NCBI GenBank assembly: GCA_904066235.2
Contig: CAJFCV020000002.1
Coordinates: forward strand, 10,416,001 to 10,480,000
DNA: 64,000 bases
Direction: 5' to 3'
Source: Bursaphelenchus xylophilus
Lineage: Eukaryota; Nematoda; Chromadorea; Rhabditida; Aphelenchoididae
The notes under the pieces are model-generated. The model saw only the letters and a list, made by a program, of their open reading frames with translations. It had not been told where the DNA came from and searched no databases. Of the stretch, positions 18,250 through 62,532 are shown one piece after another; positions within the stretch are counted from its first letter, which is position 1, and each line of letters starts with the position of its first letter. The translations under genes were made by a program, and so were the position numbers.

Positions 18250-21200
18250 ATGAAAAATGACAACCAACAGCAACGCGAACAGTTCCGCGAAGCCAATCAG
18301 CAGCTTTCGGTTGTAAAATACAACATCCCGCAGGCCTTCCAAGATGTCTTTCAAATAGAAAAAAATCCCCAAAAGGTGGTCCGCAAATTGGTGTGCGCGT
18401 CTTTGGTGGACTCCCTAGTACAGTTAGCACCGAATGAAAAGAAAGAAGTTGTAAAGAAAGGTTGGTTTTGGCAGCATTTTTTTTGATTTTGTTACCTAAA
18501 ATAAGGAAAAAGTGTTGAAATTACAAAATTTGGGATTTTTGGAGCGAATCTGTAGTGAAATTTGCGGGCCAATCGAAATTTCAGCGTATTTTAGATTTCT
18601 AAAATGACTTTTTGGGTCAAAAATTGACTTTTTTGGGTCAAAAATTGACTTTGTTACCTAAAATAATATCGATTTTTTCGAAATTTTTTGAAAAAATAGG
18701 GTTATTAAGCTCTTGATGACTTGAAAACCATTATTTTATGTTGAAAGACGACGTATTTTACCTTTTTTTGAGCAAAAAATCAACTTTGGTACCTAAAATA
18801 ATATAAAAATTTTTGTTGATTTTTGTTAAAAATTTAGTCAAAATTGATTGGAAAAGTGACCGAAATTGCTAAACCCATCGTATTTTACCTTTTTAGACCA
18901 TTTTTTCCCCAAAAACCGTCTTTTCATGTTGTCGTTGTAGAACCCAAAAATTGATATCAAAATGAGTTTAATTTTTGAGATACTTGTGGTCGAAATGGCC
19001 TAATAAGAGTCTAATTTCAGCCATAGTCGCCGTTCTCTCCCGTGCCGACGTCTTCTCCCCGGTTTATATGTCCGATGATCTGCAGAAGTTTCGAGACCCA
19101 TTAACCCAAGTGATCAACTCATTTGTTACCAGCACCACCTCATTTTTCCCGCTCAGTGTTCTGTCGCCAAGGATTGACGCCTCGTAAGTTCGATTTTGAG
19201 GGATTTGGAGGTGTTTTTGAGATTTTCAAGTTTTCGTGGTGGGACCGAAAATTTTTGAAATTTTGTTTTTTCAAAGGGAAATGAGATTTTTGAGGAGGGT
19301 TTTGAATTGGAAAAGACTTTTATGATGTGATTAGATGATATTTCAGCATAATTTCGCATTTAAAAAAGATTTTTAGGTCCCACCACGAAAACTTGATTTT
19401 CTGAAAAATCCCCCGGAAATTACGGAATTTCATGGGAAATGGGACAAAATGTCCATAGAAAATTTTATTTGATTTTTTTTCAGATTGTCCTACAGTATCG
19501 GCGACTTTTCGATAGTCTCCAGCAGATATCGCCAGGATTTCGAGGAAATCGCGGACATTGGATCTGGCGGTTTCGGACGTGTTTATAAAGTTAAATCCCG
19601 ACTGGATGGCAATTTTTACGCGGTGAAGAAAATTCCGCTGAGAAGCGCTCAAACGGATGTGCTCAGCAAAGTACGGGAATTTTTGAATTTTTTTGATTTT
19701 TTGGATTTTTTTGAATTTTTTTTATGGATTTGGTGGGCTAAAATAATATCAGAAGAGCTGTTTTAGACGGTAAAGGAGTGCAAATACCACGCCAGCCTTC
19801 AGGACCCGCACATTGTCCGGTATCATAATGCGTGGGTGGAACTGCACAGTATGGAAAATTTTGAAAGTCCAAGGTAAGAAAGGGATTGGAAATGTTGGAC
19901 AGGGCTTTTTTAAGAAATTTGGGGACGAATGGGATGGAATGGAGTGAAATTTGAGTGGATCCGGGGCGATTTTCGAGAAGAATTTACCTTGTTTTATACA
20001 AAAATGGGTGGTTTTTGGAGAAAAATGATGATTTTTGGTTGGAAAATGAAAAAAATGAGCTTGAAAATGGGTGAATTTGGATGTCTATGGACTGTTGTTT
20101 AATTTAGAATAAGGAAAACTTGATAAAATTTTGAATTTTTAAGAGAAAATGCTATTTTTAAAATTTTTCTTGTAATTTCTTTGACAATTTTTAACCTTTT
20201 TTCAGAGTCTCAACTGCTCACCAGTCCACAGCCTCACTTTCCGAGCCCTTTTTCGAACCGAATTCGGAAGCTTCGGACAGTTTGATCAGGTTTTCGAATG
20301 ACTCCCATGCCCGCTCAACCCCAATCAAAGAAGCAACCTCCGACGAATCGACCTCAGAATCCTCGGAAGCCTCATCCGAAGAGAAAGAAGGAGGATCCAG
20401 CGGAAATTCGAGCGATTTCTCGTCCTCAAATGAGGTGAAGGAAGTGGCGGTGAGAAGAAAACGATACTCCAGATCATCACATTCCAAATGGGAAACTGTT
20501 CAGGTAAGGTTTGGTAGGATTTTTGGGCTATTTGGACAGTGGAAAACAAGATTTAAAATTTTTTTTGTTTTTTTTTTTTTTTTATTTTTTTTTTATTTTG
20601 GACTGTGCAGACCTATGTTATTTTTTTGAACTGTGAAGTCAATTTCAGAAATTTTCGCACAGTGCAGATTTTTGCGTCAACTTTTTTGGCCTTGCACTGT
20701 GCGAAAATTTGCAATTTTTTTGGTCTTGCACTGTGCAAAAATTTTTGTTCAAGGTAGTTGCACCGTGCAGATTTTTTGGTCTGTTTTTTCGCACTGTGCA
20801 GGCGGTTTTTGAATTTGGCACGGTGCAGATTTTGAGCCAATTCTTTTTGGTCTTGCACTGTGCGAAATTTTTTTGTCCGATGTCGTTGCACTGTACAACC
20901 AATTTCATAAATTTTCGCACAGTGCGAAGCAAAAAATCAATTTTTTGGTCGGCACCGTGCAGATTTTTGGTCTGTTTTTTTGCACCGTGCAGACATTTTT
21001 CGAAATTTTGCACGGTGCAGATTTTGAGCCAATTTTTTTTGGTTTTGCACTGTGCGAAAATTTTTTGTCCGAGGTCGTTGCACTGTGCAGATGTTTTGTT
21101 CTAATTTTTCGCACTGTGCAGAAAATTTTTGAAATTTTGCACGGTGCGGATTTTGAAGCGCTTTTTTTGATTTTGCATTGTGCGAAAATTTTTTTTCCGA

Positions 21201-23648
21201 GGTCGTTGCACTGTGCAGATGTTTTTCTAATTTTTCGCACTGTGCAATTTTTGAAATTTTGCATCGTTGCACTGTGCAACCAATTTCATAAATTTTCGCA
21301 CAGTGCGGTGCAAAAAATCATTTTTTTGGGCCTTGAACTGTGCGAAAATTTGCACAGTGCAAGGCCAAACTGTGCAGATTTTTCTATTTTTTCGCACTGT
21401 GCAGGCGGTTTTTGAATTTGACACGGTGCAGATTTTGAGCCAATTTTTTTTGGTCTTGTACTGTGCGAAAAATTTTTGTTCAAGGTCGTTGCACTGTACA
21501 GATTTTTTGGTCTGTTTTTTTTGCACTGTGCGGACGATTTTTGAATTTGGCACGGTGCAGATTTTGAGCCAATTTTTTTTGGCCTTGCACTGTGCGAAAA
21601 TTTTTTGTCCAAGACCATTGCACTGTGCAGATTTTTTGGTCTGTTTTTTGCACCGTGCAGACAATTTTTGAAATTTGGCACGGTGCGGATTTCGAAGCAT
21701 TTTTTTTTGATTTTGCACTGTGCGAAAAATTTTTGTCCGAGGTCGTTGCACCGTGCAGATTTTTTGGTCTGTTTTTTTGCACCGTGCAGAAAATTTTTGA
21801 AATTTGCACGGTGCAGATTTTGAGCCAATTTTTTTTGGTTTTGCACTGTGCGAAAATTTTTTGTCCGAGGTCGTTGCACTGTGCAACCAATTTCATAAAT
21901 TTTCGCACAGTGCGGTGCAAAAAATCAATTTTTTGGTCGGCACTGTGCAACCAATTTTTCGAATTTTTGCACGGTGCAAAAATAAAAAAAAGTGTAAAAA
22001 AGATTATTTTTCCGCATTTTAGGGAACATATCCGATGCTTTTCATTCAAATGGAGCTGTGCCATGCCAGTTTGGAGACCTATTTGCTCAAGCGAAGCCAA
22101 CAAAAATTGGCGGAAGTGGATCATACCTTCAATTCAAAGATTGTCGAAGACGTTTTAAGTGCCATTGACTTCCTCCATGACCGAAATGTGATCCACAGAG
22201 ACGTGAAACCCAGCAATGTTTTCTTGAAAAAGTATCCAAATGGCCGAATTAGGGCACTAATTGGGGATTTTGGCCTCGCGATTGGTGATGATGAGCTAAA
22301 AGATGATGGAGATGTATTGGTTAACCCTTTTCCAGTAATGTCGAGGAGGACTAAAGGCGTGGGAACGGCGTTATATGCGGCGCCAGAGCAGTTGAACTCG
22401 AGCAAGTACGATATTTCGGTGAGTTTTGGGATTTTTCGGAATTTTTGGGGAAAAAAGTGTTGTAAAATACGTTTTAAAATGGTGATTGCTGTCTATTATT
22501 ACTGTAAGAGGTCATTTGATATATGATTTTACAGAAAAAAATATATTTTTTAAACTTTTTTTTTCAAAATTTTTTTGGGATTTTTTTGAAATTTGTTGTA
22601 AAAAATGATGTTTTTTGACAAGGAAAGTAGTTCTATGCGGATGAAGTTACAGGTCGAGACATATATCAAAAAAATCGCAAGGTTTTACTGATTCAGAATA
22701 TGTAAAAATTAGCTGCCCAATTTTGGTTTGTAAGGTCGAAAAAATCCTCAGAACTTTTCTCCCAACACCACGCAAATGCCTTTTTGACCAAGTTTTTGCC
22801 AACTCAAAAGTTTTGTTTTGAGCTAAAGTAAACCCTGGCATCTTGACAAGCCTTGAAATATCAAATTTGATTAACACTACAATGCCCATTTTTTACATTG
22901 GAGCTAGTAATTAAGGTGTAGTATTGATCAGATTTGATATTTTAAGGCTTGTCATGATACCAGGGTTTACTTTAGCTCAAAACAAAACTTTTGAATTGGT
23001 AAAAACTTGGTCAAAAAGACATTTGCGTGGTGTTGCGAGAAAAGTTCTGAGGGATTTTTCGCCCTTATAAACCAAAACTGGGCAGCTAATTTTTACATAT
23101 TCTGAATCAGTAAAATCTTGCGATTTTTTTGATGTATGTCTCGACCTGTAACTCCATGCCCCATGTAAGTACTTTTCTTGTCAAAAAATTTTTGAAATTT
23201 TGTCGAAAAAGTGACGTTTTTGATCAAAATAATCGAACTTTGTGACGTTTTATGACGGTTTGCCCAATTTCAGGCCGACATTTACAGCGTGGGAATGGTG
23301 ATTTACGAGTTGTACCAGATTTTCCGCACGAATATGGAACGAGTTATGGCCCTGAAAGACCTCCGCGAATCAAATCAATGCTCTGATTCGTTCGCCGACC
23401 TCTGGCCGGAATGGACCCTACTCGTCGAGGCCATGGTCCACAAACTCCCAGTGGAACGCCCGACCGCCAAAAAAGTGCTCGCGAAAATCCGCAGAATGGG
23501 CGAAATGTCCGAGACGGGCAGGCTCCGAAAACAGCTCAGGTCCCTCGAAAAACGCAACCAACAGCTGATTGAGACCCTCAGGGCGTATCAACAGAGGTTT
23601 GGGAGCATCGAAGAGGTCAATGGAGACAATGTACAGCTAATTACATAG
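18250..23648 (+). CDS. EIF2AK1: eIF2-alpha kinase of the heme-regulated inhibitor (HRI) type
   Basis: Stress kinase expected to phosphorylate Ser51 of eIF2-alpha and so damp translation. Exons: 18250-18460, 19021-19183, 19484-19670, 19767-19873, 20206-20503, 22023-22418, 23274-23648; 578 residues (human HRI 630). The N-terminal helical region precedes SSRYRQDFEEIADIGSGGFG, very like the HRI entry into its kinase domain. Catalytic features: glycine loop GSGGFGRV, lysine in YAVKKI, HRDVKPSNVF, DFG in IGDFGLAIG, and GTALYAAPEQL. A Ser/Glu-rich insert of about 100 residues splits the small lobe, the hallmark of eIF2-alpha kinases. The C-terminal LRKQLRSLEKRNQQLIETL is a coiled coil, as in HRI and unlike PERK or GCN2. 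No transmembrane segment or RWD domain is present. Heme-ligand residues could not be judged. Introns 5 and 6 are packed with repeats. Confidence 0.88.
20640..21990. repeat. GCACNGTGC array, about 128-bp period, in intron 5 of HRI
   Basis: Roughly ten repeats of a unit with three or four GCACNGTGC palindromes separated by T-rich spacers (ttttttggtctgtttttt, attttgagccaattttttt). Measured spacings between equivalent sites in the regular part are 127-130 bp. The array fills almost the whole 1.5-kb intron. Open frames of 100-220 codons on both strands are by-products of the stop-poor repeats. Confidence 0.85.
22628..23166. repeat. Long foldback element in intron 6 of HRI
   Basis: Two arms of about 230 bp in inverted orientation. 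The left arm begins tacaggtcgagacatatatc and the right arm ends with its complement; the inner arm ends are agctcaaaacaaaacttttg and complement. The transcribed intron would fold into a long near-perfect RNA hairpin. Single-arm fragments occur at 1735-1895 and about 29480-29565. Confidence 0.8.
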
Positions 23649-24239: not shown

Positions 24240-24480
24240 TCGCACTGTGCAATTAAAAAATTTTTTTGAAAATTTTGCACGGTGCGATGAGATTTTTTTT
24301 TCGGTTTTTTGCACTGTGCAATCTATTTTTTTGTCTAAATTTTGCACTGTGCGATGAAAAATTGTTTTTAATTTTTTGCACCGTGCAATTACAAATTTTT
24401 CGGAAAATTTCGCACTGTGCGATGAAAAATTATTTTCGATTTTTTGCACTGTGCGAAATGTTTTGTCTAAGTTTTGCATT
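24240..24480. repeat. Short GCACNGTGC cluster
   Basis: About eight sites at intervals of 25-35 bp, alternating tcgcactgtgc and tgcacggtgcg forms, with A/T-rich spacers. Confidence 0.8.
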
Positions 24481-25036: not shown

Positions 25037-25039
25037 GGT

Positions 25040-26079: not shown

Positions 26080-27296
26080 GCACAGTGCAAAAAAGATATT
26101 CCTTCCGCACAGTGCAATCAAATTTTTTGATCATTAGAAGCGCACAGTGCAATGATCTTTTCGATTATTTTTTTGCACTGTGCACTCTGAAATTTCTTTT
26201 TTTCACTCAAAAATTCCTTTTTCCTTTGCACAGTGCAAGTTATTTTCATATTTTTGTCGCTGCCGCACAGTGCGAAATTTTTTTCTTTCGCTGGAAAATG
26301 CACTGTGCAATCAAATTTGGTTTGATTTCTGCACTGTGCATCTGGAAAAGCTAATTTTTGTCGCTTTTTGTCGCTGCCGCACAGTGCGAAATTTTTTCTT
26401 TCGCTGGAAAATGCACTGTGCAGTGAAAATTGAGTTGCTTTTTGCACTGTGCATTCAGAACAACCAATTTTTGATCTGTTTTGTCGCTGCTGCACAGTGC
26501 AAAATGTTTTCCTTTCGCTGGAAAACGCACTGTGCAATCAAATTTGGTTTGATTTCTGCACTGTGCATCTGGAAAAACTAATTTTTGTCGCTTTTTGTCG
26601 CTGCTGCACAGTGCGAAACTTTTTCCTTTCGTTGGAAAAGCACTGTGCAGTGAAAATTGAGTTGCTTTTTGCACTGTGCATCCGGAAAAACTAATTTTTG
26701 ATCTTTTTTTGTCGCTGCCGCACAGTGCGAAACTTTTTTCTTTCGATGGGAAACGCACTGTGCAATCGAATTTGGTTAGATTTTTGCACTGTGCGTTTTG
26801 AAAAAATAATTTTTGTCCTTTTTTGTCGCTGCCGCACAGTGCGAAGCTTTTTTCTTTCGTTGGAAAAAGCACTGTGCAATCAAATCTGGTTAGATTTTTG
26901 CACTGTGCATTCAGAAAAGCTGATTTTTTGTCTTTTTTGTCGCTGCTGCACAGTGCGAAAATTTTTTTTTCGCTGGAAAATGCACTGTGCAGTGAAAATT
27001 GAGTTACTTTTTGCACTGTGCATCCGGAAAAAAACTAATTTTTGTCGCTTTTTGTCGCTGCCGCACAGTGCGAAACTTTTTTCTTTCGTTGGAAAACGCA
27101 CTGTGCAAGTTGGTTTGATTTTTGCACTGTGCATTTTGAAAACTTCTTCAATTTTTCAATTTTTTTCCGTCGCGACACCCTCTTTCAAGTTCACTGTGCG
27201 GAAATTTTTATTTTTTGTCGCTTCTGCATTGTGCGAAATTTCCTTTTTTCTTGAACTGCACAGTGCAGCATACTTTTTTCAATGCACCGTGCATTG
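26080..27296. repeat. GCACNGTGC array, 114-bp period
   Basis: About eight units, each with three palindromes: ttgtcgctgccgcacagtgcg, a tggaaaa-gcactgtgca, and tttttgcactgtgcat. Spacings between equivalent sites from 26379 to 27063 are 113, 114, 114, 114, 114 and 115 bp. The array runs to within 45 bp of the carboxypeptidase start codon, ending in a run of about 22 A and 10 T. Confidence 0.88.
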
Positions 27297-27338: not shown

Positions 27339-30300
27339 ATGCGGACTCTCGGACTTCTCCTGGCCATTGTGGCCCTATCGATCGCCGATCAACGCGCCGA
27401 CGACGAGATCAAGGACTTGCCCGGAGTCAACTTTGACATCAACTTCAAGCATTTCAGCGGTTTCCTTCAAGGCTCCGAAACTCATTTCCTTCATTATTGG
27501 TTCGTCGAATCGCAGGGCAACCCCGCCAAGGACCCGCTGATTTTCTGGTTCAATGGTGGTCCGGGCTGCTCGTCGTTGGACGGCCTTCTCAACGAGATGG
27601 GCCCATATGAGGCTCATGAAAATGGTGTCGATTTGAAGAGCAACCCCTACGCTTGGAATAAAGTAGGTTTTAAATGGCATAAGATGGCCATTGGGAGTAT
27701 TGAAAATAAGTTTTTGACACTTTCTGAGATGACCACAGTGTTTCAGGAAATTTTATTTTTTTGCACAGTGCAAAAAATTTTTTGATTTTTTGCACAGTGC
27801 AGAGGCGACGTGAAGTTTCCAAAATCGCCATACGTATTTTTTATGGTCCACAGAAGCTTATTAAAATTGAATTTTAAAATTTGCTCTCTTATTTTTTGCA
27901 CTGTGCAGCAATATTTACACTGCACCGTGCACAAAAGTTTTTGATTTATTGCACTGTGCAGAGGCGATGTAAAGTTTTCAAAATTGCATGAATTATTTCT
28001 CATGGTCCATGGTAAAATATAAAAATAAAATTTCGAAATTTGCTTACTTACATTTTGCACGGTGCCTCAATATTTACATTGCACGGTGCAAGTAAGAAAA
28101 TCCAAAGTCCTTTGAAGAAAATGTAAAATATAACTTTCGTTGTAGTCTACGCTATTTTACAGTCCATAAAATTATAGCCGTTCCGTATTTTACCCTGAAA
28201 TTTCAAGGATTCATAACTTTTTTCAGTTCGCTTCCGTGGTTTACATTGAATCCCCCGCTGGCGTTGGATTCTCCTACTCGACGGATGGAAACACCACTAC
28301 CAACGATGATCAGACCTCTTTGGAGAGCTACAACGCCATCAAGAAGTGGTTCGAGGTTCACTCCGAGTTCCGTCATCATCAAACTTTCATCATGGGCGAG
28401 AGCTACGGCGGTGTTTATGTTCCAACGCTGACTGCTCGGATTGTCGAAGGCCAGAGCGACTTCCCGATCAATTTGAAGGTAAAATACGGGAATACACGCT
28501 GTCGAAATTTAATATTGACGAAACGGAGGTTTTCGTGGTGAGACCAAAAATTTAGAGAAATTTGGAGATTTTTTTGGTCCTGTAGCGAAAACAAGAAGAA
28601 ATTTTTTCTAAAAAAATTATGAATTATTTTTTTTATACGTATTTTACAAGAAAATCCCAAAATTAATAACAAAATAAAAAAAAATTTGTCCCGCCACGAA
28701 AACCTGAAGATCACAGAAGGCTTTAAAAAATAGTAAATTAAGACATTGATAATGACAGAGCATCTTTATAATTTTATTCGTCGAGAATTCCGCTGAAAAT
28801 GACGTCTTTTGATAATAATGGGTCCCGCAACGAAAACCTGAAATTCTCAGAAAACATGAAAATTTCTAAAATACAAGCATTTTATATGGTTTTATTGCAT
28901 TTGTGACTAAATCTCACTTTGAAAATTTAACTTTTTCATAAAAATGGGTCTCACCACGAAAACTTGAATTCCTTCAAAATGAATGAATTTTAAAGTTTTA
29001 GTAATTAGGGTCATATTTTACAATTTAAACTTTATTTTTTCGCCCATTTATCCAACATTTTTTCAGGGCATGGCCATCGGAAACGGCTACGTGAACGAGA
29101 AACTGAACGTCGACACCTCGATCCGCTTCGCTTATGGTCACGGAATCATCGACGAGAAGGTCTGGAACACCCTCGAACTGCAATGCTGTCGTGGCTGCAT
29201 TGACGGTTGTGATCTGACCAAACTGGATGGGCATTGCGCCACTCAAGTCGAGGAGATCTTCGAATTCCTTTGGTTCGGAGGCCTGAATCCATATGATTTG
29301 TATCGCAAATGCGACCCCAACCCCGGAATCAACAGCATTAAGATGGACTCGTTGCGACTGGGAATGGCGCCAAGCTTCATTCAGAAGAAGAGAAAGAGCA
29401 ACGCTTTCAAGCTGCGCAAGGCCATGAACAAGGTAAAATACGGGAAGTTCGAGAGTAGTTTTTTCACAGGAAAAGTTCTTTTATGCGGCATGTATCAAAA
29501 AAATCGCAAAATCTATTTGATTCGGAATATGTAAAAATTAGCTGCCCAGTTATGGTTTATAAGGGTGACATTAGACTACAGTAAAAATTCGAGACAAAGA
29601 AAAAGCTCTAATTTTCATAGCTGACAATGGAATTACCCCTAGTGCGACTCTCAGATTTTCTTTAAATTTTGCACATGGGCCGGACATAGGCCACACATCA
29701 ATTCCTGAAAGTTTCAGCCCGCACCTTTCAGGGGCGACCAAGATATTCAACGATTCTTTGCGGTCAGGAGGGCACATGAGTGGTCACACAGAAAAACTTT
29801 TTGGCCATATCTTCGCTAGTTTTGTGCGGAGATAGCTGATTTTTTGTGGAAACGGTATTCTCCATGGCATGAACAGGGATGAAACTTTTAACGACAAAAT
29901 TCGTAAAAAAAGTCATTTTTTCTGGCGGTTTTCACACACGCCGAAAAAGCAGAGAAAACGACCGAAAGGCCAATAACTATGAACTAGGTCCTTGTATATA
30001 TAACATATTTGGTATTAAACAAAATGGGGTTGTCTGAGGATTCAGGGAAAAAAAGAATTTTAACATTCGGATAAAAACTAAAAAAGTTATAGCCAATTCA
30101 AGTCCGGCCGAAAAATTGCCGCACCCTGTATTTAATTTCAGATCCTCCCTCCCCACCGTTTCGGAGCTTCCGTCCCCTGCCTCAATGACACCGATGTCAC
30201 TACTTACATGAACAACCCAGCGGTCAGAAAGGCCCTCCACATCCCTGACCATCTTCCTCGTTGGGATATCTGCAGGTGAGCAAGGAAACAAAGGTGTGAG

Positions 30301-34966: not shown

Positions 34967-34989
34967 GTAACTCAAGCAAAATCATGGAG

Positions 34990-36385: not shown

Positions 36386-36466
36386 CAAAGGAAAAAAGTG
36401 GGAAGTTTGGTATTGTGATGTTAGTTGAAGCAAAACAATCGAGGTGAATAGCTCTTTTTCAGTAAT

Positions 36467-42576: not shown

Positions 42577-42619
42577 AAGTTACAGTGATTAAAATCATCT
42601 TAGACTACTGCTTCGTTCG

Positions 42620-50659: not shown

Positions 50660-53600
50660 ATGCGGAGATCAACTTGGGCGCGAATAAGCCCATTGATATT
50701 GTTACTTGTTTTCCTTCACAATTCCCATGCCGCCACGGTCATCTCGTACCCAGAGCATCAGGTGTGGTCCTATCTCAGGGAGGTGCCCAGGTCGAATGTG
50801 TCGGCCAAATGCGCCAGTTCGTTGGATAAGGTGAGATATTTGTGCTTGAAATTAAAGTTTTTTTAAAAAAAAATGCGGTTTATGACATTATTTTTGGTAA
50901 AAGTTCCTTATTTTGGCCACAACTTATAGCTTTGCGGAAACTGGTCGGAATTAGCCCAAATTTAGCGTGCACGCTCAATTCATCGTTGTCAATGCCCGGA
51001 CAGTGGATTTAGTTAGTGAGGTACCTTCTTTTTTACGTACCACCTTACCCTTCAAAAACGGCTGCAGCCTGTGATTTTACACTTTATACGATGAAACATG
51101 TCCGGAACTAAACTTATTGCCTCCGTATGGAACTAAATGAGTCGTCACAGCCTTCGTAGGTACCCTCAAAACTATAGAGCTATTATAGTAATTCAGTGAA
51201 AGCAAGGTCGAAGCGTTTTTTCCTAACTTTAGTGCCCAAGCTTGGGCGCAGTTCGCGGAGTAGCTTTGTTGTGGCCAAAATAATTGCCTTATTTTTATAT
51301 TTTTTGCAAAAATTTTGAAAAATCAAAATTTTGAAAATTTAATTATTTGACAATTTAAAAAAATATCATCAGTCTGTCGGGAAAATAATGAGCACTATGT
51401 CGCAGCAAAAGTCGCATCGCCGCCGAGAAAATGAATCGTATCCCGGAAAATTTGCTTTTAACTCGCGATTAGCACAGAAACATTGTGTTCATTATTTTCC
51501 CGACAGATTTATGATTAAATTAGGCTAAAAAGGTAAAATACGATTTCTTGAATTTATTCTGATTTTTAGTCTCTTTTTCAGCTCAATTTTTGCCATCAAC
51601 GGCTAAAAATTATAAAAACGATTTTTTTTATTTTTATTTTTTTCGATTTTTGACAAATTTGGTATTCCTAAATGAGGTTCAGAGTAAAATACCAGGCAAA
51701 ATTAGTTTGATATTGAAATATAGGTCGTTTTTTGGCGTCCGAATTTTTTTTATATTTTTTTTTTGACCTTTCATTTTTTTGCTAGTTTGACTAAAACAGT
51801 TATTAAAAAAAGAAGTGTAAAATACGTTGCAGTTTGGACACTCTTCAAAATTATTAAAAAGAGATCTAAACACAGACTTTTTCAATTTTCCTATTATTTG
51901 TCTTTTTTTATGAAATTTTTAAAAGTTTTTTTCCGTCTAGCCATTTTTTCACCTCCGAAATACCGATCCTAGACTACACAACTCTCCCAATTTTGCTTCA
52001 TCTCTGTCGTATTCGCGGTTCAGACAATAATTTTGTTTTTCGAATTCCGTCTGACCGTTAAGCCGCGCTGTCAATCATTAATTATTTGTTTTGTCAACGG
52101 CTGATCGGAATTTCGATAACTACTTGGCTAGAGAACATGTATTTTATCAACACTTTTTTATTGCATTTCAAAATAACGAAGTGACGTTATGAAATTATAA
52201 CGAAAAATTGCACAGTGCAGTAAAAAAATTAAAATAAAAAAAAGATAAATTTCAATGTGAATTAAAAAAAATTTTTTTTTGCATATATAAAGTTTTTAAG
52301 CTGTAAAAAAATTGTTAAATTTCATTTTTAAAATTTTCCGCACAGTGCGGCGAAATTAGAGATTTTAATTTTTTGCACTGTGCAATGCAAAAATAAGACC
52401 AAAAATGGGGTTGCACTGTGCGGACTTGAGAAAAATTATTTTCCACGATGATCTTTGAGCATTCAGAAGGAAATTTACTACCTTTCATTTTTGCAAACTC
52501 CGCACAGTGCGACAAATCAGTGATATGAAATTTCTGCACGGTGCAATGGAAAAAAAGACCAAAAATGTTGATTGCACTGTGCTAAATTGAAATTTATTGT
52601 TTTTAAAATACGGCGATGCATCACATTTATAATATAAACTTTGATTTTTATAAAATTTTTTCGCAGGGTTTGGGAAAGACATTGGAATGCTTGCTGCACT
52701 GTGCAGTGCAAAAATAAGCCTAAAATTTGGGTTGCACAGTGCAAAAGTAGATTTTTTTTGTCATTGATTTTGCACTGTGCAAAAATACAAATTGCAGTAA
52801 AAAAATAAAAAAAAATAAAAAAAAATTTAAAAAATTAAAAAAAAAAAAAAATAGAAAAAAAAATTTTTTTTAAATTTTTTCAAAATTAATTTCGAAATCC
52901 TTTCAGGAAAAAGGCAAAATAAAAAATAGAAATAAAAAAAAATAAAAAATATACAAAAAATAGAAAAAATTTTTTTAAATTTTTTCAAAACTAATTTCCA
53001 AATCTCTTCAGGTCGAGACCTACCTTAGCGACAAATCCACATTAGAAGCTCAACGCTCCTTCTATTCGCAGTCCTTCGGTACCGGCGATGCCACCCAATT
53101 CACATCCCGAGACCAGGACCGATGGATTTATCGGGCCTTCGAATGTCTTCAGGCTGCTGGGGAGACCGCGTACAGTGCCTCGCAATACCCCCTGCACTAT
53201 TGTTATGGGTTCAACAATGAGAAACGGGAGACTGCGTATGGGATTTGCATTCCAAGCACTTGCGCCAATGATCGGCAATTGGTGAGTTGAAGACTTTTTT
53301 AATTTTTTTTTTTTATTTTGAACGTTTTACGTGGTTTTCAAAAATTTTTTTGAATTTTTTTTATTTTTTTTTGATTTCTTGGGAGTTTGAAAAAGATTTT
53401 AGGGATCGTAAAAAAATAATTTTTTTTCAAAAGTTTTTATGAAAATTGTAACAATTTTTTCAAAGTTTTTTGAATATGACTAAAAAAGTCATTTTTACAC
53501 GGCATCTCGTATTTTACAAATTTCAAAAAAAAATTTTTTTTTGAAAGGTTACATAAAAAAAATCATCTTTTCGCGTATTTTACAAAATAAACTAATTTGC

Positions 53601-56600
53601 CACATTATTTTTTTTTTATTTTTACTTTTTAACAACATTATCCATATTTTACCATCCTTTTTTTATATTTCTCTCTTTTTCAACTTCGTTTTTTCAGCTT
53701 CTAAAAGAATGGCAAAAGTCCGCCTCCAAAGGAGAGGACGATTTGTCCTTGGACTATGAGGATTGCACAAAATCCCGGCATGCCACTCAATGGTACCAAC
53801 AGATCGTCCCATTGGTCCAATTTTCTTCCGACATTTTCCTTTTCACATTGGCTGGTCTGGCAACGCTGTACCATATCAAAAAGGGAGACAAGGCAAAGTG
53901 AGTTAAAAAAAAAAAAAATAAAAAATCCTGTAAATTTTCAGCCAAAATTATATCAAAATCAAAAAAAAGAATTTTAATTTCTGATTAAAAACTCTGTATT
54001 ATTCATGAAATTACAAGGTAAAACTGCCATTCATACCCTAGAAAATTCCAATCTAACAGGGGAAGAACTCCAAGTGCGACGCTCAGATTTTCTTTAAATT
54101 TTGCACACATGTCGGGTATGGACCAAATATCAATTCCTGAAAGTTTTAGCTCGCGCTTTCCGGGCGCCGCCGAGATATCGAACGATTTTTGCCGCCGAGA
54201 GAGCACGCTAAACGTGGAGAGCGGTCAGAGAGAAAAGCGCTTTTTGGCCATAACTTTGGCAGTTTCGTGCGGAAAAATTTAATTTTTTGTACTAGGCGGG
54301 CCAAAAAGTCTTGACATGTTTTCGCACCGTGCGGGCGCATGAATTCGGTGTCGCGACGAGGTGTCGCGCGATAAAACCTTTGGCGGGGTGCGAATGAAGA
54401 ACGCACTGTGCGTTGTTTCCCCCTTTCAAAACAATCTTTTTTGCACTGTGCGGTGTCGCATTGCACCGTAAATTTTTCTTGTCGCCGCGCGACAAATTGC
54501 ATGCACGACGGCGCACTGTGCAGACATGTCAAGACTTTTTGGCCCGCCTAGTACAGTAGAAGTAGGCATGAAAATTTTCGTGCCGAAATTCGGCAAAAAG
54601 TCCTAAATTTTGGCCGACTTTCGATCTAAAAATCTGGGTTGTTTCTGCAAAGCGCGACCTAGCATTCTCGCATATATCTTACAAAAAATTATTCTAAATT
54701 TGTGCCAAGTTTCATCAAAATCTGAGCGTCGCACTTGAAGTACTTCCCCTGTAAATAAAAAAGAATAATGATTTTTGTAACCATCTCCTTCCAGATCAAT
54801 CGAAACCCAATTCCTCTTGGCCTTTTCGCTCAAGAAGAACCTCAAAAAGCTGGTCCAAATGCCCAAGGACGCCCAGTCCACGATCACCTGCATGTTCGGC
54901 CTCCGCTTTCTCTCCATGGTCTGGACGTTGGTCGGGCATTCCTTCATTTTTGTCCAAGCTTTCATCGAAAATGTGGACGAATTCAAAGACGATTTGGTGG
55001 ATAATTTCTGGAATCAAATCATCACCAACTTCACGCTGTCTGTTGATGTGTTTTTGGTTCTTTCTGGAACGCTGACGGCGTATTCGTGGTTCAAGAAATG
55101 GCAGAAAAATACGAGCGGTAAGGCATTACTCTTCTTCACAAGCTGGATTGAAAGTTTTCGGTATTTTTTATCTTGCGCAGTGCAGTGGAAAAAAAATTTC
55201 GATTTGCACAGTGCATTAGCAAAAATCTTGGCTTGCACAGTGCAGTAGACAGAATTTTTGAAATTGCACAGTGCGGAGAAAAATTTTAAAAAAATACTTT
55301 GATTTGCACAGTGCATTGGCAAAAATCTTGGCTTGCACAGTGCGGAAAAAAGAATTTTGATTTGCACAGTGCAGTGGAGAAAATTTTTTGGTTTGCACAG
55401 TGCGAAAAAAAATTTAAAAAAATACTTTGATTTGCACAGTGCATCGGTAAAAATCTTGGTTTGCACAGTGCGGAAAAAAGAACTTTGACTTGCACAGTGC
55501 AGTGGAGAAAAATTTTGTTTCGCACAGTGCATTCTCAAAAATTTTGGCTTGCACAGTGCGGAAAAAAGAATTTTGATTTGCACAGTGCAGTGGAGAAAAA
55601 TTTTTTTTTGCACAGTGCAGTAGACAGAATTTTTGAAATTGCACAGTGCGGAGAATGAGCTTTTATATTTGCACAGTGCAGTGGAGAAAATTTTTGTTTT
55701 GCACAGTGCATTGGCAAAAATCTTGGCTTGCACAGTGCGGAAAAAAGAATTTTGATTTGCACGGTGCAGTAGACAGAGTTTTTGAAATTGCACAGTGCGG
55801 AAAAAAGAATTTTGATTTGCACAGTGCAGTGGAGAACATTTTTTGGTTTGTACAGTGCGGATAATAAGCTTTTTTATTTGCACAGTGCAGTGGAGAACAT
55901 TTTTTGGTTTGCACAGTGCGGAGGATAAGCTTTTTTATTTGCACAGTGCGGAAAAAAGAATTTTGATTTGCACAGTGCAATACACAAAATTTTTGAAATT
56001 GCACAGTTTGGAGAAAAATTTTTAAAAAATACTTTGATTTGCACAGTGCATTGGTAAAAATCTTGGCTTGCACAGTGCGGAAAAAAGAATTTTGATTTGC
56101 ACGGTGCAGTAGACAGAGTTTTTGAAATTGCACAGTGCGGAGAATAAGCTTTTTAATTTGCACAGTGCAGTGGAGAAAATTTTTGGTTTGCACAGTGCAG
56201 TGGAGAAAAATCTTGGCTTGCACAGTGCGGAAAATAAGCTTTTTTATCTGCACAGTGCGGGAAAATGAATTTTGATTTGCACAGTGCAGTAGACAAAATT
56301 TTTGAAATTGCACAGTTCGGAGAAAAATTTTTAAAAAATACTTTGATTTGCACAGTAAAATGGAAAAAAAATTGTGAAATTGCACAGTGGACTGATTTTT
56401 TTTTTGATTTGCACAAAACAGAGGGTATTTCGTACGATCCTTCGCACAGTGCAATGGACTAATTTTTGAATTTACAGAATTTACAGAATGCACAGTGCAA
56501 AAGAAAAAAAAATTATTTTTTGCACAGTGAATTTGAAAAAAAAAATAAATTTTTTTCGCACTCTGCAATGGCATTTTTTTCTTTGTAAAATACGAGAAGG

Positions 56601-58590
56601 TCGCTTTTTTCTTGAATAAACGTATTATTGCTTAAAATATTATAAAATACGGTTGCAACGTGCAAAAAATTCAAATATAAAAAAAAAATCAAATTTTGCA
56701 CTGTGCAATCAAGAAAAAACCATTTTTGTAAAGTACGTCGTATTTCATGAAGTCTATCTATTTTTAATTTCTTCCATCTATTTTTTATATCCTAATCCCT
56801 CCAATTTTTCAGAAATTGAGCCCTCCTGGACGTCCTACGGCTTCTGGCTTCGCTTCTATCGTCATCGTATTGTCCGCCTCTACCCTGCCTACGTCTACAC
56901 CCTCATAGCCGTTACAATGCGAGTCTCGGTGACACATTACCATCCAATGTGGCCTCCGACCGACCCAGCCGTCCAATGTCCCAAGCATTGGATCGAAAAT
57001 ATCTTGTTCATCAACTCGTTGACCGACAATCGTTGCATGCCGTGGACATGGTACATCGGCACCGAATTTATCTTCTATCTTTTGGCTCCGATCTTCCTGC
57101 TGACGCTGCGACGCAACCCATCACTCGGTCTGGGCATTTCGGTGGCCACTATTGTCGTTTCGGCGGTTTTGAATGTCATTTGCATGTTGATCTACAACTT
57201 CCCACCAACACAATTGCTGTGGAAACAACCAGCCAACTTCAATCCGGACTTTATTCTTCATCATTTGGTGATCTACATCAAGCCCTGGTATCGAATTGGC
57301 CCATACATTGTGGGCATCTTGTTGGGCTACCATCTGGCCGGCTACCAGGCGCAGACGCAGAAAAAATCAAGAAGCCTGCGATTCGTCCTCACTGGATGGG
57401 CAATTGCTGGAGCTATGTTGTTCTGGGGATTGTTTGGAGTCTACCCGGCGCTTCAAGGTAGGTCAAATTTACTCTTACGTTGAGCTATGGGGTGGAATAT
57501 AAAACCTTTGAGATTTGCACAGTGCAAAAGTAAAATTTGAGATGTTTGCACTGTGCAATGAGGGTTAATGAACTTTTTTGGCATATTTTCGTTTTTTAGA
57601 TACTCTGCATAGTAAAAAACCCAAAAAAAATTTTTTTTTGCGTCTGCACTGTGCGGTAGGAAAATCGGAAATTTTGCACAGTGCGGTCAAAAAACTCTTA
57701 AATTTTTGCACAGTGCAGAAGGAAAAATTGATTTTTTGGATCTTTAGCAATATAATAGACGTTAGTTCTCTAATTTTATGTCGAATTTTTCTTTTATCAT
57801 AATGCAAACACAAAAAAATTTGGAACTTTCTCACTGCACAGTGCAAAGAAAAAATTTTCTTTTTTTGCACCGTGCGACAGAAAATTTTGGTTTTTTTGTG
57901 CTATGATTCACAGTATGGCCAAAATTTGTCTGGTCTTAATTCTTTAGGCTTTTCTGCACCGTGCAAACCTCAAAACTTTTAGTTTTATTTTTTGCACGGT
58001 GCAAAAAAATAATTTTTTTGGACAGCCCGCAAAAGCGTTGAGGACTAAAAAAATCAAACAAAAAGTGTTGTAAAATACGATATATTAAGCAAATATTTGA
58101 TTTTTCAGGCTGGGACTGGCCCATCTACCACATTGTCTACGGCGCAACACATCGCACCGTGTTCGCCCTGGGACTCTCCTGGCTGATCTACGCTTGCCAT
58201 ACCGGGCTTGGTGGACCCCTGAACAGCTTCCTCTCATCTCGTTTCTTCCTTCCACTCTCCTCCCTCTCCTACTCCGTGTACTTGATCCACATGATCCCCG
58301 TGGTGTTCACCTACCTCATCGTCCCATTCCCCCTGCATTTCACCGCCAAATGGAGGTACTTCATCCATTGCTTCATACAGCTCTGCATTTCGTACGTGTT
58401 CGGCACGCAATGCACGTTGATGGCGGAGCTGCCCGTTCTGAATATCGAGAGGATCTTGCTGACTCGCGATCGCAAAGCGACGCTCAAGCCGGTCCCTCAG
58501 AATGATTGCGAGCTGCAGCTGAAGCCGACGGAAGAGGGAAAGGGCTCGGCTCCGACCTCGCCGAGGGCCATGTCGCCGAATAAGACGTAG
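50660..58590 (+). CDS. NRF-6-type multi-pass membrane acyltransferase
   Basis: Belongs to the nematode/insect nose-resistant-to-fluoxetine family: a secreted-side N-terminal domain joined to an acyltransferase-3 membrane domain; C. elegans members affect lipid and drug transport. Exons 50660-50830, 53012-53281, 53698-53897, 54795-55117, 56813-57457 and 58109-58590 give 696 residues. Features in order: signal peptide (RISPLILLLVFLHNSHA), cysteine block HYCYGFNN...GICIPSTC, first membrane span, GLRFLSMVWTLVGHSF (the conserved GxRxxxxxxVxxxH region), SVDVFLVLSG, YRHRIVRLYPAYVYTL, several more spans, and a basic cytosolic tail. The TTTCAG just before the ATG suggests trans-splicing. Almost 6 kb of the gene is repeat-filled intron. 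Confidence 0.9.
50896..51288 (+). mobile_element. GGTAAAAGTTCC-family MITE in intron 1 of the acyltransferase
   Basis: A perfect 8-bp duplication, ttattttt, flanks it (50888-50895 and 51289-51296). The right end has lost about 10 bp of the terminal repeat (aaaataattgcc in place of aaaataaggaactttttcc). 393 bp, non-coding. Confidence 0.85.
51368..51512. mobile_element. CTGTCGGGAAAAT-family MITE in intron 1 of the acyltransferase
   Basis: Left end atcagtctgtcgggaaaata, right end attattttcccgacagattt. The interior matches the 7851-7999 copy (gcatcgccgccgagaaaat). Confidence 0.75.
52205..52790. repeat. GCACNGTGC cluster in intron 1 of the acyltransferase
   Basis: About ten sites with irregular spacing; a loose unit contains aatgcaaaaataag(a/c)c and aaaaatggggttgcactgtg. 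Followed by low-complexity A-rich DNA (52790-52990). Confidence 0.75.
54056..54752. mobile_element. ACAGGGGAAGTACTCC-family MITE interrupted by a TA-target element
   Basis: Outer ends acaggggaagaactccaagt and cttgaagtacttcccctgt. The interior matches 42132-42576 but is split at 54290 by the element listed next. In intron 3 of the acyltransferase. Confidence 0.8.
54292..54551. mobile_element. TA-target MITE with GCACNGTGC sites in its arms
   Basis: Starts CTAGGCGGGCCAAAAAGTCT and ends with the exact complement; TA flanks each side (54290-54291, 54552-54553) and the host element gives the empty site. TA duplication fits the Tc1/mariner superfamily. The inner arms contain cgcaccgtgcg, gcactgtgcg and gcgcactgtgc. 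A decayed relative is at 7656-7845. Confidence 0.8.
55175..56570. repeat. Dense GCACNGTGC array in intron 4 of the acyltransferase
   Basis: About fifty sites spaced mostly 25-35 bp, joined by short spacers such as ggaaaaaagaattttgattt, agtggagaaaattttt and ttggcaaaaatcttggctt. Nearly all are CACAGTG in the same orientation of flanks (tttgcacagtgc). Spacers are shuffled, giving a higher-order mosaic. The 300-codon minus-strand open frame here is a repeat artefact. Confidence 0.88.
57515..58010. repeat. GCACNGTGC sites in intron 5 of the acyltransferase
   Basis: About nine sites with irregular spacing and no clear unit; mixture of CACAGTG, CACTGTG and CACCGTG/CACGGTG centres. A GTAAAATACG lies at 58069 near the intron's 3' end. 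Confidence 0.75.
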
Positions 58591-60013: not shown

Positions 60014-62532
60014 ATGGGCTCGGCCGATTTCCCAATGATAATTCGACCGTTGGAAATCAAGGATGTTGAGCAGATCAAGAGGTAAGTACTATACATATAT
60101 ACGTGTATGTATATCTGTAGATGTACATAAATTGGTGGTAATTTTTAAAATTCGAACTTTTAGGAGCAAAAATAGGGAGTGGCTTTTCAGTGATCCGTAG
60201 GAAAATACTTTTAAAAGAATTTCCAACAAAGGCTAGGGCGCAGCTCGGAAATTTTGATTTTTTCGGATTGCCCCAAAAATGGAAATTTCGATGCTTTTGT
60301 CTGATTATTTATTTCTTCATTCAACTTATGGTATATAAACTTCGAAAAAAAGAATTTTGAGAAAAAACCAGGGCGCAGCTCGAAAAAAATCAAAATTTTT
60401 ATTAGTGCTTTCTCGGTGTAAGGGGCAATTTTTGGACTTATTCCTGAAAGGGAAAAAATAAAACTAACAGGGAAAGTACTTCAAGTGCGACGCTCAGATT
60501 TTGATGAAACTTGGCACAGATTTAGAATAATTTTTTCTAAGATATATGCGAGAATCCTAGTTCGCGCTTTGCAGAAACAACCGAGATTTTTAGATCGAAA
60601 GTGGGCGAAAATTTGACACTTTTTGCTGAATTTCGGCACGAAAAGTTTCGTGCCTATTTCTACCATGGAGGGTAATGTTTCCACAAAAAATTAATTTTTT
60701 CCGGCACGAAAAGTTTCGTGCCTATTTCAACTGTAACGGATAATGTTTCTACAAAAAAATCAATTTTTTCCGCACGAAACTGGCAAAGTTATGGCCAAAA
60801 AGTGTTTTTCTCTCTGACCGCTCTCCACGTTTATCGTACTCTCTCGGCGGCAAAAATCGTTCGATATCTCGGCGACGCCCGCAAAGTGCGAACTAAAACT
60901 TTCAGGAATTGTTTAGTTCATGCCCGACGTGTGCTCAAAATTTAAAGAAAATCGGAGCGTCGCACTTGGAGTACTTCCCCTGTAGATTAAAATAAATTCT
61001 GATTAAAAAAAAAAAATTCTGATTAAAAAAAACACGGCTTGGGCGCAGCTCGAAAAAAACAAGAGTTTTTGAGGTTGAATAATAAAGAATAGGCATTCAT
61101 TTTTCTCCAACTTTACTTTTAAAATATGTACGTTTTGTAACCTCATCCGACCAACTGTTTCAGCCTGAGCGACACAGTCTTCCCCATCCGATACCCCGCT
61201 GATTACTTTGCCGATTGCATCAAGAGTGAAGAATATTTATCGCTGGCGATTTTCGATCAACTCAACTTGCTCGGATTTATTTTTGTGATCAAGAAATATC
61301 GTTCTCCATTGACTCCGAATTCATCAGATTTCGAGGAGCTGGCTCAGGCCAAAGAGTACAGGGTAAGCGAATTTTTCAATGCACAGTGTTTTTTTTTTGT
61401 TTTTTTTTTGCACATTGCAATGAAATTTGAAGTTTAATTTTTGCTAAAATTTGTTACAGTAAGTTTTGAAATTTGTTAAAACTTCATTATTTTGGCCTCG
61501 ACTTGTAACTTTGCGGAAACTGGTCGGAATTTGCCCAAATTTAGCGTGCACGCTCAATTCATCGTTGTCAATGCCCGGACAGTGGATTTATTTAGTTAGT
61601 GAGGTACCTTCTTTTTCACGTACCACCTTACCCTTCAAAAACGGCTGCAGCCCGTGATTTTACACTTTATACGATGAAACATGTCCGGAACTAAATTTAT
61701 TGCCTCCGTATGGAACTAAATGAGTCGTCACAGCCTTCGTAGGTACCCTTAAAACTATAAAGCTATTATAGTAATTCAGTGCCAGCTAGGTCGACGCGTT
61801 TTTTCCTAACTTTAGTGCCCAAGCTTGGGCGCAGTTCGCGGAGTACCTTTGTTGTGGCCAAAATAAGGAACTTTTTCCCGAAATTTCGTGACACAAAGCA
61901 AGTTAAAACTACTCTGATTTCGGGAGCTGAAAAAAGAAGAAGGTTTTGTCCCGCACTGTGCGGCCAAAATTTATTTTAAATCTGGCCGCACTGTGCGAAA
62001 TTTGAGATGTTTTTATATTGATATAATTCTTCCGGGAGGCTTTGAAATTTGATGTCAGAATAAAAATTAATTGTTTTTACGCAATGCGGAAAAACATTGG
62101 AGAAAAACAAAACTTTTTGCACAGTGCGGGACAAAAATTTTTTACGCTGACTGCACCGTGCAAAAATATTTTTTTTTATTTTGTTTTGTCTCTATACCTC
62201 ATTTTTTAAAATTTTAGCCACCCTACATCTCAACGATTGGAATCCGCCCATCGCATCAGGGCCGCGGCCTGGGCGCATTCCTGATCTCTCAAGCCAAACA
62301 CATCTTGTTTTTGAACGACGACCCCAAGTTCATTTATCTGCATGTGATGACCGCCAACGAGAATGCGATCCGATTCTACGAACGAATCGGATTTCAGAAG
62401 TACAGGAAGGTCAAGAATTACTATCAAGGCTGCAGCATCTATCCGGATGCTTACATCATGATCAAACCTTTCAAGAAGAGAGAGAACATTGACATCAATG
62501 AGTTGAAAAGCAATAAAGAAAACTGGATTTGA
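60014..62532 (+). CDS. GNAT-family N-terminal acetyltransferase (NAA60/NAA50-like)
   Basis: Expected to acetylate protein N-termini starting Met-hydrophobic, using acetyl-CoA. Exons 60014-60081, 61164-61362 and 62218-62532 give 193 residues. The N-terminal part IRPLEIKDVEQIK and VFPIRYPADYF matches the substrate-site region shared by NAA50 and NAA60. The acetyl-CoA loop is RPSHQGRGLGAFL (Q/RxxGxG/A). IYLHVMTANENAIRFYERIGF is the signature C-terminal GNAT motif of both enzymes. The loop before the CoA motif (about 18 residues, SPLTPNSSDFEELAQAK) is longer than in NAA50 and like NAA60, but the membrane-binding tail of NAA60 is missing. Assignment between the two is open. Confidence 0.85.
60468..60984. 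mobile_element. ACAGGGGAAGTACTCC-family MITE in intron 1 of the acetyltransferase
   Basis: Ends acagggaaagtacttcaagt and cttggagtacttcccctgt. A near-duplicated segment in the middle (cggcacgaaaagtttcgtgc occurs twice, about 60633 and 60701) makes it slightly longer than 42132-42576. Confidence 0.75.
61475..61879 (+). mobile_element. GGTAAAAGTTCC-family MITE in intron 2 of the acetyltransferase
   Basis: Starts gttaaaacttcattattttg and ends aaataaggaactttttccc. Flanked by gaaattt on both sides (61468-61474 and 61880-61886), at least 7 bp of target duplication. Interior nearly identical to 43035 and 50896. Confidence 0.8.
61950..62165. repeat. GCACNGTGC sites in intron 2 of the acetyltransferase
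   Basis: Four strict sites (about 61953, 61988, 62119, 62152) with irregular spacing, plus near-matches at 61381 and 62080. Confidence 0.65.

What the first reader, a model, noticed from the sequence alone, without database searches (positions are those of the whole stretch)
20640..62165. One palindromic 9-mer, GCACNGTGC, shared by many otherwise unrelated satellite arrays and introns
Seen: roughly 200 copies by eye, where about one is expected by chance in 64 kb. The arrays at 20640, 26080, 31738, 35440, 37088, 44890, 46340 and 55175 have different spacers and different periods, yet all are built around the same palindrome, with all four central bases used and flanks usually extending the symmetry (TGCACNGTGCA or CGCACNGTGCG). 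It is absent from the exons I assigned. Inference: the motif, not the repeat unit, is what is retained, as expected for the binding site of a dimeric DNA-binding protein or a target of a targeting mechanism. Nematodes are known to use zinc-finger proteins (HIM-8/ZIM) on clustered short motifs at pairing centres, and holocentric chromosomes need dispersed sites; either role would be possible but is not shown.
Basis: partly seen in the sequence, partly recalled or inferred. Interest (0 to 1): 0.87.

Follow-up and report, generated by a model that had tools for sequence, protein, structure and literature searches.

The report
Palindromic motif dotting pinewood-nematode chromosome arms
In the pinewood nematode, one nine-letter palindrome is repeated tens of thousands of times in clusters and stays intact while the DNA around it changes, which points to an unknown protein that binds there.

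Summary
The window is Bursaphelenchus xylophilus. It carries 246 exact GCACNGTGC copies where 0.36 are expected; the genome carries 41,616, against 178 for the reversed control. Between neighbouring units of 12 window arrays the eight fixed bases differ at 3.2%, the free centre at 27% and the spacer at 20%: base identities are constrained, not the repeat. Of 496 cluster pairs, 295 match with the motif visible and 6 with it masked. Motif pairs closer than 20 bp are almost absent: 110 at distances 9-19 against 5,155 at 20-26. Seven window arrays have a period of 159-160 bp. Sampled copies lie in both chromosome arms and rarely in the middle; none lies in 6,152 bp of assigned exon. Best reading: clustered sites of a dimeric DNA-binding protein with a footprint of about 20 bp, acting in arm chromatin. 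Protein and role are unknown. A HIM-8/ZIM-like pairing centre is not supported; a centromeric role, like the Meloidogyne 19-bp box, remains open. In nine literature searches I saw no description of this motif.

The parts
20657..21977 (.). array of 36 copies, spacing mostly 27-37 with a 128-bp super-period, by my reading inside an intron of a protein kinase gene
   Evidence: open frames on both sides match Pkinase profile positions 2-42 (27.4 bits, below the 31.7 cut-off) and 73-178 (65.9 bits)
24242..24454 (.). 7 copies, spacing 33-35
26080..27292 (.). 31 copies, 114-bp unit with spacing about 48/35/31, 5' of a serine carboxypeptidase gene
27763..28089 (-). 7 copies, 159-bp unit, by my reading in an intron of the serine carboxypeptidase gene; inverted relative of the array at 31743
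   Evidence: Peptidase_S10 profile positions 1-85 before it and 171-260 after it
31743..32895 (+). 17 copies, 159-bp unit (30+130, some 24+136), 3' of the serine carboxypeptidase gene
34311..34507 (.). 4 copies, gaps 31, 129, 28
35443..36386 (.). 11 copies, 160-bp unit
37089..38878 (.). 13 copies, mostly one per 159-bp unit
44892..45789 (.). 14 copies, 160-bp unit (31+130)
46343..47616 (.). 16 copies, 159-bp unit
49051..49574 (.). 8 copies, units of 158-163 bp (32+128)
50017..50350 (.). 9 copies
52210..52780 (.). 10 copies
54324..54521 (.). 4 copies
55206..56706 (.). 37 copies, spacing mostly 29-31, centre A in 34 of 37, by my reading mostly in an intron of an acyltransferase-3 gene
   Evidence: upstream exon at about 54781-55072 assigned by eye from its open frame
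57517..58002 (.). 9 copies, between the 56620-57480 frame (acyltransferase by Pfam) and the 58042-58587 frame (no Pfam hit; assigned to the same gene by eye)
61953..62161 (.). 4 copies just 5' of a GNAT acetyltransferase exon at 62218-62529

Best explanation
Each GCACNGTGC is the core of a site for a two-fold symmetric DNA-binding protein. Each half of the dimer reads GTGCRR and tolerates any base at the dyad; a directional A-tract outside each half may help by narrowing the minor groove. The bound dimer occupies about 20 bp, so sites closer than that are not kept, and neighbours sit about 30 bp apart. Clusters of such sites, often phased at about 160 bp (about one nucleosome repeat), mark introns and intergenic DNA, mainly in the chromosome arms. 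I infer that the protein packages or anchors arm chromatin (heterochromatin or nuclear-periphery type, possibly including kinetochore sites). Shown: copy number, base-specific constraint, minimum spacing, arm bias in a sample, absence from assigned exons. Inferred: that a protein binds, that it is a dimer, and what it does. Local duplication enlarges arrays, and selection on single sites keeps the motif.
For: 41,616 genome copies against 178 for the reversed pattern. GCAC-N(2 to 5)-GTGC gives 1,332 over four spacings, control 1,040. Twelve window arrays, neighbouring units: fixed bases 28 of 883 differ, centre 30 of 110, flanking pairs 78 of 432, spacer 794 of 3,892; motif kept in 92 of 109 aligned copies, whereas spacer windows of the same size are identical in 484 of 2,468. 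Eleven array rows outside the window agree: fixed 15 of 618, centre 12 of 77, flanking pairs 34 of 310, spacer 246 of 1,670, kept 64 of 76, control 277 of 861. Minimum spacing: 110 pairs at 9-19 bp against 5,155 at 20-26 bp genome-wide; 0 of 494 gaps below 20 in held loci. Purine after GTGC in 98.5% and pyrimidine before GCAC in 97.4% of 534 copies, the sides independent. Outward A4 run on sides without a neighbour within 80 bp: 39% against 15% background. Of 529 clustered sites, 171 exact and 22 one-mismatch ones have no detectable related spacer in their own cluster (128 and 12 if relatives are called at the 80% level of the null instead of 95%), so copying alone does not explain exactness.
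Against: No binding protein is identified and there are no chromatin or expression data. The constraint is weaker in the array at 20952-21990 (fixed 18 of 217, spacer 70 of 459), and in 5 of 13 arrays the centre did not vary either (0 of 21, 4, 4, 2 and 4), so the free centre rests on the other eight. The flanking pairs, though biased, change about as fast as spacer. Some arrays are recent (L034 units 89-100% alike, L045 96-98%). The sibling test uses short spacers and can miss relatives (L048). Arm bias is usual for nematode repeats and is not specific; C4 shows none. Keeping about 330,000 bases (41,616 x 8) under selection is a large load unless selection acts on clusters.
Confidence: 0.55

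Rival explanations
1. Holocentromere box: the motif is the docking site of a centromere protein (CENP-B-like or a CenH3 loader), as proposed for the 19-bp box in Meloidogyne centromeric repeats; units of about 160 bp hold one centromeric nucleosome each.
For: Meloidogyne CenH3-associated repeats are five divergent families that share a conserved 19-bp box (PMC9673304, passages). Period near 160 bp in arrays whose spacers mostly show no detectable relation. Seven CENP-B/Tc5-type DNA-binding domain loci in this genome.
Against: Copies are rare in the middle of chromosomes (6 of 81 sampled places in the middle 40%), while holocentromere activity should run along the whole length. Many clusters have 30-bp and not nucleosome-length periods. 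Box and motif differ in length and symmetry.
Confidence: 0.15
2. Motif-dependent amplification: the motif binds a recombinase or transposase-derived protein that makes arrays grow, so units with an intact motif are the ones copied; no host function.
For: Arrays look like local births: a 319-bp unit finds its own array, one inverted neighbour array, and otherwise only matches of 41-78 bases (that search scores only its best candidates and skips very common words). A similar role was proposed for conserved boxes in Meloidogyne satellites (PMC3694981, passages).
Against: After copying, the motif would decay like the spacer; it does not. Copies without any detectable relative in their cluster are still mostly exact, 171 against 22.
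Confidence: 0.17
3. Meiotic pairing centres of the HIM-8/ZIM type.
For: Clustered short motif with variable spacers, as in C. elegans pairing centres.
Against: Both arms of chromosomes and one motif for all six; none in the first 10 kb of the six large contigs, other ends not looked at. In C. elegans the 12-base motifs are enriched at one end per chromosome and several proteins share the chromosomes (PMC9071541, passages).
Confidence: 0.05
4. RNA-level function: neighbouring copies pair in introns or transcripts.
For: Every copy is complementary to every other apart from the centre; several arrays lie in introns by my reading. One of ten flank positions is clearly more often complementary than in random pairs (0.346 against 0.285).
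Against: Centres of neighbouring copies (376 pairs) are complementary less often than in random pairs (0.261 against 0.326), and 8 of 10 flank positions are below random; clusters also lie between genes.
Confidence: 0.03
5. Passive relic: one very old satellite with a unit near 160 bp whose motif is simply its slowest part, without function.
For: Median z of large spacers between 160-bp arrays is 0.95 and 3 of 66 pairs exceed 3, so faint common ancestry of some is possible.
Against: Arrays with other units (30, 68, 84 and 114 bp) share the motif but not the unit. Something must still hold eight bases and not the ninth.
Confidence: 0.05

Closest known systems
Meloidogyne satellites with a conserved CENP-B-box-like 17-bp motif and the CenH3-associated 19-bp box
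   Same: Short box conserved between otherwise divergent tandem repeats in a plant-parasitic nematode; protein binding inferred (PMC9673304 and PMC3694981, passages)
   Different: There 11 satellites share the CENP-B-like box and 5 families the 19-bp box. Here the box is a 9-bp two-fold palindrome with a free centre, at 41,616 places, with a minimum spacing near 20 bp, and most cluster pairs examined share nothing else detectable
C. elegans HIM-8/ZIM pairing-centre motifs
   Same: Clustered short motif that recruits a DNA-binding protein
   Different: 12-base motifs at one end per chromosome and four proteins (PMC9071541, passages); here both arms and one motif
Helitron-related Caenorhabditis satellites built on the palindromic decamer AGAANNTTCT
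   Same: One short palindrome shared by related repeats of different lengths (PMC4595182, passages)
   Different: Another palindrome, and the repeats there are multiples of the decamer itself, not unrelated spacers around it
Frequent short motifs of nematode genomes (Subirana and Messeguer), e.g. Mo17 TGGCANNNTGCCA in C. elegans
   Same: Species-specific short motifs, some palindromic, alone or within satellites
   Different: Mo17 has 1,056 isolated copies; none of the listed motifs is GCACNGTGC and B. xylophilus is not in the table shown (PMC3634726, passages)
MspI satellite of B. xylophilus, about 160 bp (recalled, no paper read)
   Same: Same species and about the same period
   Different: Not compared base by base here; a 159-bp tandem pair at the start of contig C8 that I take for it (recalled) holds no GCACNGTGC
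Repeat families 'without TE feature' in the first B. xylophilus genome paper
   Same: 411 families, 93,885 copies, about 21% of the genome; these clusters may be part of that unexplained share (PMC3164644, passages)
   Different: The passages that I saw name no common motif

Membership tests
HIM-8/ZIM pairing centres | motif concentrated at one end of each chromosome | tested here: not met
   sampled places lie in both arms of five of six chromosomes, C4 2/2/2; 0 copies in the first 10 kb of C1-C6, other ends not looked at
HIM-8/ZIM pairing centres | motifs differ between chromosome sets | tested here: not met
   the same 9-mer on all six
HIM-8/ZIM pairing centres | bound by a C2H2 zinc-finger protein of the him-8 operon kind in early meiosis | not testable with these tools
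   no binding data; relatives of the proteins were not searched
CENP-B-box or 19-bp-box satellites | one box conserved between divergent tandem repeats | tested here: met
CENP-B-box or 19-bp-box satellites | 17-19-bp box | tested here: not met
   palindromic core of 9 bp, 13 with flanks
CENP-B-box or 19-bp-box satellites | association with CenH3 chromatin | not testable with these tools
   no chromatin data
CENP-B-box or 19-bp-box satellites | a CENP-B/Tc5-type DNA-binding protein exists in the genome | tested here: met
   7 HTH_Tnp_Tc5 loci over the cut-off; the 14 control genomes were silent; no link to the motif shown
single satellite DNA family | repeat units align between arrays | tested here: not met
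   6 of 496 cluster pairs with the motif masked; one 319-bp unit finds only matches of 41-78 bases outside two neighbouring arrays; faint similarity of some 160-bp units remains possible
homotypic binding-site clusters | fixed recognition bases, free linkers, minimum spacing, no copies in coding sequence | tested here: met
   coding sequence tested on 6,152 bp only
homotypic binding-site clusters | a factor that binds | not testable with these tools
   none identified

The most novel reading that the evidence does not exclude
A sequence-specified chromatin system covers the arms of a nematode genome: some 41,600 two-fold sites for one unknown dimeric protein, kept one by one against mutation while arrays around them turn over, and set at nucleosome-scale intervals, so that DNA sequence and not only epigenetic state defines arm chromatin or kinetochore zones.
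Probability: 0.35. Interest if true: 0.88.

Novelty: new variant of a known kind. Interest (0 to 1): 0.76.

Why it matters
In nematodes it is unclear how kinetochore sites and arm heterochromatin are placed, and sequence is usually thought to matter little (my own knowledge). Here a nine-letter word at tens of thousands of places shows the marks of a binding site under selection, with a built-in control, the free centre base. That makes the question testable: one synthetic DNA bait should fish out the protein, and one antibody or tag should show where and when it binds. It may also explain part of the 21% of this genome that earlier work listed as repeats without transposon features (PMC3164644, passages).

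Tried and rejected
RNA hairpins between neighbours: tested, 8 of 10 flank positions and the centre below random complementarity, two positions above (0.370 against 0.364 and 0.346 against 0.285). Generic palindrome-driven amplification: rejected, since among all 4-N-4 palindromes in the window GCAC has 246 copies and the next that is not made of A and T alone, GGCC, has 22; a one-base loop is also too short for a hairpin (established knowledge). Recent amplification as the general cause of exactness: not supported, though some arrays are recent (L034, L045). One ancestral unit: not supported beyond faint similarity of some 160-bp units. Helical phasing of spacings: the histogram shows humps near 21-24, 28-35, 38-42 and 48-51 with a trough at 43-47, but the Rayleigh scan did not single out a 10-bp period, so I make no claim. 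The first self-alignment was faulty (several arrays were aligned to themselves without shift) and is not used; replace it. A dicodon exon finder over-fitted and is not used. The first sibling test (138 exact and 25 one-mismatch sites without a relative) left out relatives closer than 95 bp; one search mends that and is the one used. The nearest-sibling scan (21 of 233 copies with 95% or more, median 72%) is gapless and leaves out copies closer than 60 bp. THAP-domain search: no hit, but its controls were silent too, so it shows nothing. An acyltransferase exon search named several nematodes but not the species. Search for the motif letters in papers: 114 papers, 40 listed, none opened; titles and abstract starts show no nematode repeat paper. 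Nine paper searches in all. Passages of PMC13370393, PMC8022731 and PMC3823978 were also seen and name no such motif.

Rows dropped or selected before counts: 101 sampled motif places were collapsed to 81 (within 5 kb); the control listing held 100 of 116 places, of which the 3 on C6 were left out because that chromosome was cut off, and 97 were collapsed to 75. On C1-C5 alone the motif has 5 of 64 places in the middle 40%. One search leaves out the array at 49051 that is; rows at 55228 and 55461, and rows within L037 and L046, overlap. Unit pairs below 60% identity would have been left out by the script; none of the printed pairs fell below. One search considered only units of 150-170 bp with one inner motif, from 12 arrays; the units found were 157-166 bp. 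Loci fetched were chosen because copies were known there, so their copy density is not a random sample.


Full report
What was checked. The window is stretch 10,416,001-10,480,000 of contig C2 in a genome of 78,253,340 bases in 8 contigs. A uridine kinase exon at 16367-16813 is identical, over the 97% of it that aligns, to a Bursaphelenchus xylophilus protein whose contig has 12,140,115 bases, exactly the length of C2, and the sizes fit the v5 Ka4C1 assembly (78.3 Mb, largest scaffold 15,101 kb, N90 12,140 kb; PMC7561696, whole text). So this is the pinewood nematode.

Count. GCACNGTGC occurs 246 times in the window; a first-order Markov model predicts 0.36. Genome-wide there are 41,616 copies; the same pattern read backwards gives 178. 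With up to one mismatch the total is 60,270, control 8,238, so one-mismatch forms number 18,654 against 8,060 in the control. In 16 array spans of the window (13,766 bp) there are 233 exact, 26 one-mismatch and 28 two-mismatch copies; outside them 13 one-mismatch and 109 two-mismatch copies. Centre lengths 2 to 5 together give 1,332 genome-wide, control 1,040. The word and its one-base centre are therefore specific.

Motif against spacer. I aligned each unit of an array to the next. In 13 window arrays the eight fixed bases differ in 32 of 924 aligned positions, the centre in 31 of 116, the two flanking pairs in 84 of 449, the spacer in 868 of 4,134. A rerun on 12 window arrays, counting a motif present in either unit, gave 28 of 883, 30 of 110, 78 of 432 and 794 of 3,892; 92 of 109 motif copies were kept, while spacer windows of the same size were identical in 484 of 2,468 (these windows overlap, so I give no p-value). 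Eleven array rows from C1, C3, C4, C5 and C6 gave 15 of 618, 12 of 77, 34 of 310 and 246 of 1,670; 64 of 76 copies kept against 277 of 861 windows. The centre base sits between fixed bases and still varies, so neither gene conversion nor youth of the arrays explains the constancy. Against this: the array at 20952-21990 shows a weaker contrast (18 of 217 against 70 of 459), in 5 of 13 arrays the centre did not vary either, and the flanking pairs change about as fast as spacer. The contrast is a property of the set, not of every array.

Not only recent copying. In the window, 21 of 233 array copies have another copy, at least 60 bp away, whose 60 gapless flank bases agree at 95% or more; the median best agreement is 72%. 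In the window and 16 other loci, 529 clustered sites (470 exact, 59 one-mismatch) were compared by their spacers with the other spacers of the same record within 2.5 kb: 171 exact and 22 one-mismatch sites have no relative above the 95% level of a between-locus null; with the 80% level the numbers are 128 and 12. The spacers are short and the test can miss relatives: L048 scores as without relatives although the repeat finder sees 2.5 copies of a 30-bp unit there. L042 is a clean case: 8 exact copies, no one-mismatch copy, no tandem repeat found, and visibly different spacers. Two loci are recent instead: units of L034 are 89-100% alike and those of L045 96-98%.

Arrays do not share units. Of 496 pairs among 32 clusters, 295 match at E up to 1e-3 with the motif visible and 6 with motif and two flanking bases masked. 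A 319-bp unit of the array at 31742 finds its own array, the inverted array at 27762, and elsewhere only matches of 41-78 bases (that search scores its best candidates only and skips very common words). Among 66 pairs from 12 arrays with units near 160 bp the large spacers show z above 3 in 3 pairs, median 0.95, so a faint common ancestry of some of these arrays is not excluded.

Spacing. In held loci 0 of 494 gaps are shorter than 20, and the commonest are 29-31. Genome-wide, pairs at distance 9-19 number 110 and at 20-26 number 5,155. Seven window arrays have a period of 159 or 160 bp by the repeat finder, and units picked between 150 and 170 bp measure 157-166. The two gaps vary (24+136, 30+130, 36+124) but the sum stays near 160. 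The likeness to a nucleosome repeat is suggestive only.

Flanks. Of 534 copies in 18 held records 98.5% have a purine after GTGC and 97.4% a pyrimidine before GCAC; over this set the two sides are independent, while in the window alone C..G is somewhat more frequent than expected (25 against 17). On sides with no neighbour within 80 bp an A4 run lies within +11 to +22 in 39% of cases and a T4 run in 17%; the background is 15% and 17%. This looks like two half-sites, GTGCRR plus an A-tract, around a free dyad base.

Place. Two samples of copies picked by unrelated flank letters (46 and 55 places), collapsed to 81, put 6 in the middle 40% of chromosomes; a control word put 29 of 75 there on C1-C5, where the motif has 5 of 64. 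Left/middle/right: C1 11/1/13, C2 6/1/3, C3 6/0/7, C4 2/2/2, C5 4/1/5, C6 7/1/9. The first 10 kb of the six large contigs and of C7 hold none, six 4-kb stretches from chromosome interiors hold 2, and unplaced contig C8 holds 60 in its first 10 kb. The window, at 3.8 copies per kb, is about seven times richer than the genome mean of 0.53. Repeat-rich arms are usual in nematodes, so the arm bias alone says little.

Genes. Pfam finds uridine kinase, protein kinase, serine carboxypeptidase, acyltransferase-3 and GNAT exons on the plus strand; two of the three kinase stretches score below Pfam's cut-off, and one tested frame (58042-58587) has no hit. The arrays at 20657 and 27763 lie between exons of one gene by profile position; the array at 55206 does so by my reading of the upstream open frame; the cluster at 57517 lies between the acyltransferase frame and the frame without a hit. 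No copy lies in 6,152 bp of 16 assigned exon stretches. Exon ends are not proven by RNA.

Interpretation. The marks (fixed bases, free dyad, half-site flanks, a minimum distance of about two helical turns, clusters, none in assigned exons) are those of a clustered binding site of a dimeric protein; that step is inference from sequence. What it does is open. I favour arm-chromatin packaging or anchoring because the sites are many, uniform and mostly in arms; a kinetochore role, by analogy with the CenH3-associated 19-bp box of Meloidogyne repeats (PMC9673304, passages), is the main alternative with a function. Pairing centres are disfavoured. Seven CENP-B/Tc5-type loci exist in the genome; nothing links them to the motif.

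Literature. In nine searches I saw no description of this motif. The library holds open-licence papers only, and the search by motif letters listed 40 of 114 papers, none opened.

Noticed in passing
G000:C1:1812-27322: A 13-base word recurs, mostly every 2,250 bp or so, beside the TTAGGC telomere: probably a subtelomeric tandem repeat with a unit of about 2.25 kb.
   Followed up: no
window 2818-3342 and 6415-6846: Two neighbouring open frames with the same Pro/Thr-rich tail, likely tandem gene duplicates.
   Followed up: no
window 42430-42579 (-), 54606-55013 (-), 60422-60613 (+): The same protein-like stretch recurs in three places on both strands, probably a dispersed repeat.
   Followed up: no
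window 14880-15150, 43370-43600, 44050-44260: GC-rich stretches that translate to Gly/Pro/Arg-rich repeats, alike in three places.
   Followed up: no
L020 1-340 (C8 start): A 159-bp tandem pair without GCACNGTGC, which I take (recalled) for the MspI satellite; further on, from 1954, the contig holds 60 motif copies.
   Followed up: partly
window 27763-28089 and 31743-32895: Two arrays 4 kb apart are inverted relatives at 75-77% identity, one within and one after the same carboxypeptidase gene.
   Followed up: partly
G000, 7 places, e.g. C4:1000264-1000449: CENP-B/Tc5-type DNA-binding domain loci.
   Followed up: no
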